In this document: piece after piece, positions 43,464-46,290 of the stretch | Layout of the letters: each line of letters starts with the position of its first letter | Numbering within the stretch: the first letter of the stretch is position 1 | Origin: Methanosphaera sp. | GTDB lineage: Archaea; Methanobacteriota; Methanobacteria; Methanobacteriales; Methanobacteriaceae | Direction: 5' to 3' | Assembly: GCF_022768985.1 (NCBI RefSeq) | Contig: NZ_JALEKL010000004.1 | Location: forward strand, 1-64,000 | Length of the DNA stretch: 64,000 nucleotides | Made by a program: the position numbers and the translations under genes | Notes under the pieces: model-generated | The model's input: only the letters and a program-made list of their open reading frames with translations | Told to the model about the DNA's origin: nothing | Database searches by the model: none

Positions 43464-44288
43464 ATGTTATCAAAAAGAATTATTCCATGTCTTGACTGTG
43501 ATTTACAAGTACCAGAAGGACGTGTAGTTAAAGGAGTTGAATTTAAGGAAATTAAGTATGCGGGAAATCCTGTAGAACTTGCAACACGTTACTACAATGA
43601 AGGTGCTGATGAAATTGTACTTCTTGATATTACAGCATCACATGAACGTAGATCTACAATGGTAGATGTTATAGAAAAAACTGTTGAAAATGTATTTGTA
43701 CCAATCTGTGTTGGTGGAGGAATACGTGAAGTTGATGATTATGTACGTATGCTTAAAGCAGGGGCAGATAAATGTTCAACAAATACATCAGCAATCAAAG
43801 ATCCAACACTTATAAATCGTGCATCAGAAGTTGTTGGAAGTCAAGCATGTGTTATTGCAATTGATGCAAAAAGACGCTATGTGGAAGATCCAAAGGAATC
43901 TGATGAACATAATATTGTAGAAACAGATGAAGGATACTGCTGGTTTGACTGTAGTATTTATGGTGGACGTGAATTTACATCAATTGATGCAATCAACTGG
44001 GCTATTGAATGTGAAGAACGTGGTGCTGGTGAAATTCTTCTTACAAGTATGGATGGAGATGGAACAAAAGCAGGATATGATCTTGAACTTACACGTGCAA
44101 TAAGTGAAAATGTATCAATACCTGTTATTGCATCAGGTGGAGTTGGAAATCCAGAACATATCTATGAAGCATTTAGTGAAGCTAAAGCTGATGCTGCTCT
44201 TGCTGCAAGTATCTTCCACTTCCATGAATATTCTATTGGAGAAGTTAAAGAATACTTAAAACAGAAAAATATACCTGTAAGAATATAA
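43464..44288 (+). CDS. hisF: Imidazole glycerol phosphate synthase subunit HisF
   Basis: TIM-barrel cyclase of histidine synthesis (274 aa). The catalytic Asp is in [19 protein letters not shown], and phosphate-binding loops are [11 protein letters not shown] and [27 protein letters not shown] holds the second catalytic Asp. There is a small insertion relative to the usual CLDV(K/R)DGRVVKG start. The partner HisH is not adjacent. GGGTG precedes the ATG. Confidence 0.95.
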
Positions 44289-44345: not shown

Positions 44346-45266
44346 ATGACACTTATAGTAAACATACCAACATATGAAGGAATCGTAGTAGCAGCAGATA
44401 GTAAACAAGTACAAACACAAAACGGAATGCTAATGCGAGCTTCAACAAACATAACAAAGATATTTGAAATAAACAATAAAACAATAGCATCACTTGCTGG
44501 TCTTGCATTTTTTGAAAGAACACCTGGTAGATATGATAATGTAGCAGATTATATCAATGAATATGCACAAACAACAGATGATACAACAACAGTAAAAGAG
44601 ATTGCACAGGGATTATATCAATATATTCTTGATCGTTATCCTATAGAAAAACAGATGGAAATAGCAGAAGAAACACTTAAAACACAGGCTGCTATGGCTG
44701 GTGATGAAATTATATCTATTACCAGATTCTGTCAATCTCTTAAATTTAAAGCACAAGATAATGAAGGAAATATAAAGGAAGGATATTATAACTTAGAACC
44801 TGTAAATATCATGGTTAGTGGATATAATGAAAATAATGAAACTGAAGTTTATGAGATGAGAATTCCAGGTTCTATTGAATTAAAACGTGGACCTAATGAT
44901 TATGGTTGTACATGGATTGGACAGGGTGATGTTGTAGCACGTTTAGTTCTAGGATATGATGGACGTATGCTTAATACACCAATTTTCCAGGAAATACTAC
45001 AAACACACAGCCAAGAAGAACTTATTGGACAGATAAGAAATGTTGAATATAATGTTTCATGGAATCTTCTACCTCTTCAAGATGCAATTGACATGGCAGT
45101 ATTTCTAATTAAGACAACAGAAACTATGCAGAAGTTCTCCTGTGGAATTATTGGTGAAAATACTGAAATTCCAGCAGTTGGTGGTCCTATTGATGTTGCA
45201 GTAATCACAAAAAATGATGGAATTAAGTGGATTAATCGCAAAGAACCATACTTCCCTGATGAATAA
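44346..45266 (+). CDS. Proteasome-beta-like Ntn hydrolase, stand-alone
   Basis: A 306-aa protein whose N-terminal half resembles proteasome beta subunits. With the ATG at 44346 (a TTG at 44340 is a poor alternative), Met removal exposes Thr1. The strand TLIVNIPTYEGIVVAADSKQ puts Asp at position 17 exactly as in beta subunits. ITKIFEINNKTIASLAGLA supplies the Lys33 equivalent (Lys37, just before IF) and the following glycine loop. The C-terminal ~100 residues are extra. It is not near other proteasome genes. Distant proteasome relatives in methanogens include the connectase ligases, but I cannot assign this protein to that group. Function unknown; fold call moderate. Confidence 0.6.
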   Translation: MTLIVNIPTYEGIVVAADSKQVQTQNGMLMRASTNITKIFEINNKTIASLAGLAFFERTPGRYDNVADYINEYAQTTDDTTTVKEIAQGLYQYILDRYPIEKQMEIAEETLKTQAAMAGDEIISITRFCQSLKFKAQDNEGNIKEGYYNLEPVNIMVSGYNENNETEVYEMRIPGSIELKRGPNDYGCTWIGQGDVVARLVLGYDGRMLNTPIFQEILQTHSQEELIGQIRNVEYNVSWNLLPLQDAIDMAVFLIKTTETMQKFSCGIIGENTEIPAVGGPIDVAVITKNDGIKWINRKEPYFPDE

Positions 45267-45366: not shown

Positions 45367-46290
45367 TTGATAGAAAATAATTTTAGTATAGATTCATGTG
45401 AATATAGTGGAGATTTTAATTTAAAGTTAACACTCATGACAGGTCAAACATCACAAGTTCCATGGACTAGGTATGATGATGCATATTATGAGGTATTATG
45501 TGTAGATGGATGTGACATTTTAGTTAAAATAAAACAAGAGAATGTAAATAATACACTGGAGGTATCATATTTTAGCCGTGAATATGATGTAGATGATGAA
45601 TTAGTAAGGCAGAAACTATTCTACTTATTTGACTTAGACTACCAGATGGATGATTTCTATGGATTTCTAGATGAAAATCCTGAAATATCACAAATATCAC
45701 AATTTAACAAGGGACTTAGAATATTTAAGGCAGAAAGTCCATTTGAATGTATAATATCATCAATATCATCAGCAAACAACTCAATAAAAAGATGGACAAA
45801 ATCAATGCAACAAATACGACAAAATCATGGAAACTACATAGAATATGGAAATAGAAAATACCATAAATTTCCAGATGAGACAACATTCCTAAAAATAGCA
45901 GAAGAAGATCTTAAAAGTTATGGAGTAGGATATAGAAGTCCATACATGATAAATACAACAAAACAAATACTAGAAGATGATAATTTTCATAATGAAATAT
46001 TTAACATGACATATCCTGATGCATATAAAAAACTACTACAACTACCTGGTGTAGGACCTAAAGTTGCAGACTGCATACTACTATATGGATATGATAAACC
46101 ACAAGCATATCCTACAGATGTATGGATTAATAGAATAACAACACACATCTACTTTGATGATGCGAAAATATCAAATAAAAAGATTATGAAATTTGCACAA
46201 GAGAAATTTGGAAAATATGCAGGATATGTACAATTATATCTTTTCAATTATGCACGAAACTCAAAACTACTAGATAAACTTAAAAAATAG
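45367..46290 (+). CDS. 8-oxoguanine DNA glycosylase/AP lyase (OGG1 type)
   Basis: A base-excision repair enzyme of 307 aa. The HhH-GPD signature is LPGVGPKVADCILLYGYDKPQAYPTDVWI (about 224-252): the Lys of PKVADC is the catalytic lysine and the Asp of PTDVW the second catalytic residue, in the OGG1 order. The N-terminal TATA-fold domain is present. The first codon is TTG at 45367, with AAGGATGG upstream; no ATG fits. Codons switch from T-ending to strongly A-ending near 45600. Confidence 0.9.
   Translation: MIENNFSIDSCEYSGDFNLKLTLMTGQTSQVPWTRYDDAYYEVLCVDGCDILVKIKQENVNNTLEVSYFSREYDVDDELVRQKLFYLFDLDYQMDDFYGFLDENPEISQISQFNKGLRIFKAESPFECIISSISSANNSIKRWTKSMQQIRQNHGNYIEYGNRKYHKFPDETTFLKIAEEDLKSYGVGYRSPYMINTTKQILEDDNFHNEIFNMTYPDAYKKLLQLPGVGPKVADCILLYGYDKPQAYPTDVWINRITTHIYFDDAKISNKKIMKFAQEKFGKYAGYVQLYLFNYARNSKLLDKLKK

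What the first reader, a model, noticed from the sequence alone, without database searches (positions are those of the whole stretch)
44346..45266. Lone proteasome-like hydrolase with Thr exposed by Met removal
The start at 44346 gives M-T, so methionine aminopeptidase alone would expose Thr1. Asp17 and a Lys before IF (position 37) match proteasome active-site positions, and a glycine loop follows. The 100-residue C-terminal extension and absence of proteasome partners set it apart from true beta subunits. Methanogens have at least one other distant proteasome relative that acts as a protein ligase (connectase), so a new activity here is plausible.
Basis: partly seen in the sequence, partly recalled or inferred. 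Interest (0 to 1): 0.65.

Follow-up and report, generated by a model that had tools for sequence, protein, structure and literature searches.

The report
Orphan proteasome-like enzyme in Methanosphaera
This gut methane-producing microbe carries, besides its normal proteasome, a separate single-gene cousin of the proteasome with an intact-looking active site; it is a real, strongly conserved enzyme of a kind already described from sequence but never characterised, so its substrate is an open question rather than a new principle.

Summary
The 306-aa protein starts M-T, keeps the proteasome catalytic residues (Thr1, Asp17, Lys33, Gly47 equivalents), passes the Pfam Proteasome cut-off, and is predicted (pLDDT 88.8) to have the 20S beta fold. 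Thr/Ser1, Asp and Lys are conserved in all 38 homologues aligned, with Thr in Methanosphaera and Ser in bacteria. Two details are corrected. There is no 100-residue C-terminal extension: the C-terminus is core fold, and the extra length is two internal insertions (about residues 100-151 and 204-241). The genome does have a canonical proteasome, elsewhere. The protein resembles the "proteasome homologs with multiple insertions" (PMI) of Fuchs, Alva and Lupas 2021 (architecture fits PMI-3; cluster identity not verifiable here). The gene lies between hisF and an OGG-type glycosylase in all 12 Methanosphaera loci compared, a position empty in relatives: a gain at the base of the genus. It is under purifying selection; relatives occur patchily in Patescibacteria, Atribacterota and Caldisericota. 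Connectase is absent from Methanosphaera and its KDPGA site in MtrA is degraded, so a connectase-like role on MtrA is unlikely. Side finding: the nearest archaeal paralogues are often followed by a small ORF and a ParE-type toxin gene.

The parts
44346..45266 (+). Proteasome-like Ntn hydrolase gene, 306 aa, stop at 45264-45266
   Evidence: ORF; PF00227 over cut-off; orthologues in 19 of 20 genomes of the genus; dN/dS 0.03-0.07 in the closer orthologue pairs
44349..44351 (+). Thr codon (residue 2; mature Thr1, predicted nucleophile)
   Evidence: T in 16/16 Methanosphaera rows, S in 22/22 bacterial rows
44397..44399 (+). Asp (residue 18; Asp17 equivalent)
   Evidence: 38/38 conserved; aligned with position 17 of the family's psmB
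44457..44459 (+). Lys (residue 38; Lys33 equivalent)
   Evidence: 38/38 conserved; aligned with psmB Lys33
44499..44501 (+). Gly (residue 52; Gly47 oxyanion-hole equivalent)
   Evidence: 37/38 conserved; aligned with psmB Gly47
44643..44798 (+). Insertion 1 (about residues 100-151): helix 100-117 plus three strands, after H1/H2
   Evidence: Absent from psmB in the profile alignment; AlphaFold2 secondary structure
44955..45068 (+). Insertion 2 (about residues 204-241), between H3 and H4
   Evidence: Absent from psmB; AlphaFold2 short helices 206-233
45177..45194 (+). V-G-G-P-I-D motif in the C-terminal core (residues 278-283), the family signature
   Evidence: V278, G279, G280 and D283 invariant in 38; shared with the ~270-aa and ~400-aa paralogues
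43464..44288 (+). hisF, conserved upstream neighbour
   Evidence: Pfam His_biosynth; same place in 12/12 Methanosphaera loci
45367..46290 (+). OGG/HhH-GPD DNA glycosylase, conserved downstream neighbour
   Evidence: Pfam OGG_N and HhH-GPD; 12/12 Methanosphaera loci; directly follows hisF in relatives that lack the proteasome-like gene

Best explanation
A stand-alone, propeptide-free N-terminal-nucleophile (Ntn) hydrolase of the proteasome-like superfamily, of the kind with two internal insertions (PMI-type). Methionine aminopeptidase removes Met1; Thr1 Ogamma, activated by the Lys33 and Asp17 equivalents, attacks an amide carbonyl, giving an acyl-enzyme that water resolves. It works without the proteasome alpha/beta rings. 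The two insertions, one at the pore-loop side after H1/H2 and one between H3 and H4 where proteasome rings pack, make a 20S-like stack unlikely and probably select a narrow substrate, so a specific peptidase or amidase rather than a bulk protease. SHOWN: gene, fold prediction, conserved catalytic set, absence of a propeptide, insertion positions, purifying selection, and an extra gene between hisF and the glycosylase throughout Methanosphaera where relatives have none. INFERRED: Met removal, hydrolysis, substrate narrowness, oligomeric state. The substrate is unknown.
For: Pfam Proteasome over cut-off, 17/17 same-genus proteins. Thr/Ser1, Asp17 and Lys33 equivalents 38/38, Gly47 equivalent 37/38; the Thr/Ser swap keeps the nucleophile chemistry. 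AlphaFold2 pLDDT 88.8, pTM 0.86; Foldseek best PDB hits are 20S proteasome subunits, E 2e-8, probability 1.00. Profile-profile match to psmB E 4.7e-7 with two internal gaps. Gene kept in 19/20 genomes of the genus, fixed locus in 12/12, dN/dS 0.03-0.07 in the closer pairs. 16 of 17 bacterial carrier genomes show no second PF00227 match, so it does not need one. Insertion sites as described for PMI-3/PMI-4, and the argument that such insertions disfavour rings, from PMC8665760.
Against: No activity, structure or substrate is known for any close relative. Residue 193, near proteasome Ser129, is invariant Gln, not Ser. The Asp166 region is not clearly matched, and residue 266 (Asp in 35/38) is Cys in the window protein. 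No coordinates were available to check active-site geometry. Neither the 2021 paper nor this work found a genomic context pointing to a function for this subfamily. The window-L005 pair has a higher dN/dS (0.27).
Confidence: 0.68

Rival explanations
1. A protein or peptide ligase (transpeptidase) working like connectase: Thr1 forms a stable acyl/amide intermediate with a specific sequence and transfers it to another amine instead of water.
For: Same superfamily, exposed Thr1, narrow methanogen genus, insertions that could cover the active site. Connectase is absent from the genus (0/20) but present in 110/119 other Methanobacteriaceae, so a functional vacancy exists.
Against: Profile similarity to connectase stops after about residue 21; insertions differ in position from connectase's S3/S4 insertion (PMC8665760). 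The connectase site KDPGA is degraded in all 8 Methanosphaera MtrA proteins checked (NDPGA, EDPGC, EDPEV, NNPGA). Homologues occur in bacteria, which are not expected to have MtrA.
Confidence: 0.12
2. A ring-forming, self-compartmentalised general protease, like HslV or BPH, with the insertions forming a cap.
For: Proteasome beta fold; in bacterial carriers it is usually the only PF00227 member; the 2021 authors note such insertions could form a cap (PMC8665760).
Against: The insertion between H3 and H4 lies at the ring-ring contact; no unfoldase or other partner recurs beside it; Methanosphaera already has a 20S proteasome.
Confidence: 0.12
3. A catalytically silent relative (scaffold or binding protein) that keeps the fold.
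For: Gln in place of Ser129 and an altered loop 264-276 in the window protein.
Against: Thr/Ser1, Asp17 and Lys33 equivalents invariant across archaea and several bacterial phyla, hard to explain without catalysis.
Confidence: 0.08

Closest known systems
Proteasome homologs with Multiple Insertions (PMI-1 to PMI-6; Fuchs, Alva, Lupas 2021, PMC8665760), especially PMI-3
   Same: Proteasome beta-like core, catalytic triad, insertion after H1/H2 and between H3/H4 (the combination reported for PMI-3 and PMI-4); PMI-3 is listed in Proteobacteria, other bacteria and Euryarchaeota, as here.
   Different: Cluster membership could not be tested: their alignments are in an external dataset. The PMI-3 reference sequence OGZ26396.1 belongs to an accession series I recall as Patescibacteria, from memory only. 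No function is known for any PMI.
~270-aa and ~400-aa proteasome-like paralogues of Methanobacteriaceae (L074-L080, L081-L084); the ~400-aa kind matches phage family phrog_5990
   Same: Same N-terminal Thr, Asp, Lys set and C-terminal VGGPID..ITK..GF.W signature; profile-profile E 7.6e-34 and 2e-15.
   Different: The ~270-aa kind lacks insertion 1, the ~400-aa kind has much longer insertions; both are often followed by a ParE-like toxin gene, which the window kind is not.
20S proteasome beta subunit (psmB)
   Same: Fold and Thr1/Asp17/Lys33/Gly47 positions.
   Different: No propeptide, two insertions, Gln at residue 193 near Ser129; encoded on a different contig from psmA and psmB.
Connectase (PF09894 MJ0548_N)
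   Same: Superfamily, exposed N-terminal Thr/Ser, methanogens.
   Different: Profile similarity only in the first ~21 residues; different insertions; complementary distribution within Methanobacteriaceae.

Membership tests
Proteasome-like superfamily (Ntn hydrolase clan, Pfam PF00227) | Sequence match over curated cut-off | tested here: met
   25.9 bits vs 22.4
Proteasome-like superfamily (Ntn hydrolase clan, Pfam PF00227) | Four-layer alpha-beta-beta-alpha fold | tested here: met
   Predicted only: AlphaFold2 pLDDT 88.8; Foldseek to 20S subunits E 2e-8, probability 1.00, TM-score by target up to about 0.70
Proteasome-like superfamily (Ntn hydrolase clan, Pfam PF00227) | N-terminal Thr/Ser with Asp17, Lys33 and Gly47 | tested here: met
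   38/38, 38/38, 38/38 and 37/38
20S proteasome beta subunit | High similarity to archaeal psmB (TIGR03634) | tested here: not met
   17.6 bits vs cut-off 224; genome has its own psmB on another contig
20S proteasome beta subunit | Assembly with alpha rings | not testable with these tools
   Needs protein work
Connectase | PF09894 (MJ0548_N) match | tested here: not met
   No PF09894 hit in the Pfam scan of the protein nor in the own genome
Connectase | Intact KDPGA substrate motif in MtrA of the same genome | tested here: not met
   Own MtrA has NDPGA (L116)
Connectase | Ligase activity | not testable with these tools
   Needs assay
PMI-3 cluster of Fuchs et al. 2021 | Insertions after H1/H2 and between H3/H4 | tested here: met
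   Profile alignment to psmB and AlphaFold2 secondary structure
PMI-3 cluster of Fuchs et al. 2021 | Clustering with reference sequence OGZ26396.1 | not testable with these tools
PHI cluster of Fuchs et al. 2021 | Insertion after H1/H2 and closeness to reference WP_012956871.1 (taken as M. ruminantium from a neighbouring accession) | tested here: inconclusive
   Insertion after H1/H2 present; but no window-type gene at E <= 1e-12 in G072, whose length of 2,937,203 bp I take for M. ruminantium M1 from memory, which speaks against PHI

The most novel reading that the evidence does not exclude
The PMI clade is a set of Ntn hydrolases that began as the third part of ParE/RelE-type toxin-antitoxin cassettes (as the ~270-aa and ~400-aa archaeal relatives still suggest: hydrolase, small ORF, ParE-like toxin), and the window protein is a chromosomal, domesticated member without a toxin partner that became fixed between hisF and the glycosylase at the base of Methanosphaera.
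Probability: 0.12. Interest if true: 0.72.

Novelty: new member of a known kind. Interest (0 to 1): 0.42.

Why it matters
Proteasome relatives range from bulk proteases to a protein ligase, and most of the clusters described in 2021 have no known substrate. This one is conserved across a genus of gut methanogens that includes a cultured species (M. stadtmanae), has no propeptide and is a single gene, so it should be easy to express and assay. The side finding (ParE-type toxin genes behind closely related proteasome homologues) would be, if it holds, a first genomic context for this group, where the 2021 survey reported none.

Tried and rejected
Connectase: tested by Pfam, profile alignment and genome distribution; rejected as identity, and unlikely as a replacement on MtrA because KDPGA is degraded. 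Canonical beta subunit: rejected (TIGR03634 far below cut-off; separate psmB). C-terminal extension domain: rejected (it is core). Viral origin: no window-type relative in IMG/VR with the patterns used, only weak C-terminal matches in phages and plasmids; the best viral fold match is a phage-encoded proteasome-like protein of 219 aa. Defence system: no PADLOC match. Conserved operon partner outside Methanosphaera: none recurring across phyla. Finding the PHI reference gene in the presumed M. ruminantium genome at 2.5-2.9 Mb: no candidate, so the Fuchs cluster name could not be fixed. A single-sequence genome-contig scan found nothing; the alignment-based scan worked. Direct phmmer against the PDB found nothing relevant; the profile search gave weak proteasome hits.

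Full report
OBSERVATION. Window 44346-45266 (+) is an open reading frame of 306 aa. It starts ATG-ACA, Met-Thr; a TTG two codons upstream would give M-T-M-T, but the ATG is the start conserved in the homologues. Pfam Proteasome PF00227 matches at 25.9 bits against a cut-off of 22.4, the archaeal beta equivalog TIGR03634 only at 17.6 against 224. So it is a real proteasome-superfamily protein but not psmB. The window's genome (1.6 Mb, 15 contigs) has canonical alpha and beta genes on two other contigs. The genus is Methanosphaera: related loci found carry that name, and one genome of the genus (G014) has the single-contig length I remember for M. stadtmanae DSM 3091 (1,767,403 bp).

CONSERVATION. 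Orthologues occur in 19 of 20 genomes of the genus; the one without is 77% complete. A genome-contig scan with the alignment found 41 loci in all, including Patescibacteria of many lineages, Atribacterota, Caldisericota/Cryosericum and single records named Desulfobacteraceae, Fusobacteria, Actinomycetota and Dehalococcoidia; some single-record assignments could be binning errors. A sample of 380 genomes of one Patescibacteria phylum gave 8 carriers of the window type, one of them split over two contigs. Across 38 aligned proteins, residue 2 is Thr in all 16 Methanosphaera rows and Ser in all 22 bacterial rows; Asp18 and Lys38 are invariant, Gly52 is 37/38. With Met removed these are Thr/Ser1, Asp17, Lys37 (Lys33 equivalent) and Gly51 (Gly47 equivalent). 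No homologue shows a propeptide. Nei-Gojobori dN/dS is 0.03-0.07 for the four same-genus pairs other than window-L005 where dS could be estimated; window-L005 is 0.27.

FOLD AND ARCHITECTURE. AlphaFold2 with 17 sequences gave pLDDT 78.3, with 38 sequences 88.8 and pTM 0.86. Foldseek's best PDB matches to both are 20S proteasome subunits with probability 1.00. TM-score normalised by the target reaches about 0.7; by the query it is below 0.5, as expected from the insertions. Profile-profile alignment with the family's psmB (E 4.7e-7) runs through the whole beta subunit and leaves two main gaps, at about residues 100-151 and 204-241 of the window protein. The model puts a helix and three strands in the first and short helices in the second. 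The last 100 residues contain H4 and the final strands of the core: they are not an extension.

LOCUS HISTORY. In all 12 Methanosphaera loci compared the order is argF, hisF, proteasome-like gene, OGG/HhH-GPD glycosylase (Pfam). In genomes of the same family and order without the gene, hisF is directly followed by the glycosylase (G022, G149, G088, G094, G070, G066, G072 and the order-level G037 and G047). The simplest reading is one insertion in the Methanosphaera ancestor. The tree puts the Methanosphaera proteins in one clade (97/99) next to the bacterial ones, compatible with transfer from bacteria; direction is not proven, since two bacterial rows are unresolved and long branches meet near the outgroup.

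CONNECTASE. Within the family, connectase (PF09894) is found in 0 of 20 Methanosphaera and 110 of 119 other genomes, the mirror image of the window gene. This is one clade, so one event, and no independent test of replacement. The connectase recognition motif KDPGA (PMC10154401) is kept in a MtrA of each of the three connectase-bearing relatives examined (one extra copy has KDSGA), but is NDPGA, EDPGC, EDPEV or NNPGA in eight Methanosphaera MtrA proteins. Thus the connectase-MtrA pair has decayed, and the window protein is unlikely to act on the same site.

LITERATURE. Fuchs, Alva and Lupas 2021 (PMC8665760) described 22 new proteasome-homologue clusters. [quoted passage not shown] they argue these could prevent ring or double-ring assembly, and report no informative genomic context. 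The window protein has both insertions; PMI-3 fits by architecture and distribution. The reference alignments could not be reached, so this is a lead, not a test. The ~400-aa archaeal paralogue matches phage family phrog_5990 over its full length (E 1.3e-78); PMI-4 is the only PMI cluster listed in phages, so that paralogue is probably PMI-4 (inference).

SIDE FINDING. The ~270-aa and ~400-aa paralogues in Methanobacteriaceae have the same Thr, Asp, Lys set and C-terminal signature. Downstream, on the same strand, 7 of 8 loci of the ~270-aa type and 6 loci of the ~400-aa type have a ParE-like ORF; a model built from seven of these toxins hit 13 of 30 paralogue loci against 1 of 106 control loci. 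Seven of the 13 are the training loci and two more are near copies, so only about four are independent. Pfam ParE_toxin is above its cut-off for four of seven tested directly. A small ORF of about 70-100 aa lies between in most. None was seen next to the window-type gene.

MECHANISM. Shown: gene, fold prediction, conserved catalytic residues, insertions, purifying selection, insertion site. Inferred: Met removal (from the established specificity of methionine aminopeptidase for small second residues), amide-bond hydrolysis, narrow substrate range, non-ring assembly. The substrate is unknown.

Noticed in passing
L166-L172, L083, L084 and loci L180-L209: ~270-aa and ~400-aa proteasome-like paralogues in other Methanobacteriaceae (and a few Methanosphaera) are often followed by a small ORF and a ParE/RelE-type toxin ORF (13 of 30 loci against 1 of 106 controls; about four of the 13 independent of the training set).
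   Followed up: partly
L112-L124 (mtrA loci) and the genus as a whole: Connectase is absent from all 20 Methanosphaera genomes, and the KDPGA connectase site in MtrA is degraded in the 8 genomes checked.
   Followed up: partly
window 45367-46290: OGG_N/HhH-GPD DNA glycosylase directly behind the gene, conserved in position in 12/12 Methanosphaera loci; adjacent to hisF in many other Methanobacteriales.
   Followed up: partly
L166 (G127:C31): In one other Methanobacteriaceae genome a ~270-aa proteasome-like paralogue with a ParE-like gene sits directly after the same hisF-glycosylase pair, on the other side of the glycosylase from the window-type insertion point.
   Followed up: no
L060, L061: The Cryosericum odellii and C. 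hinesii copies contain X or N runs followed by a frame change, probably assembly gaps.
   Followed up: no
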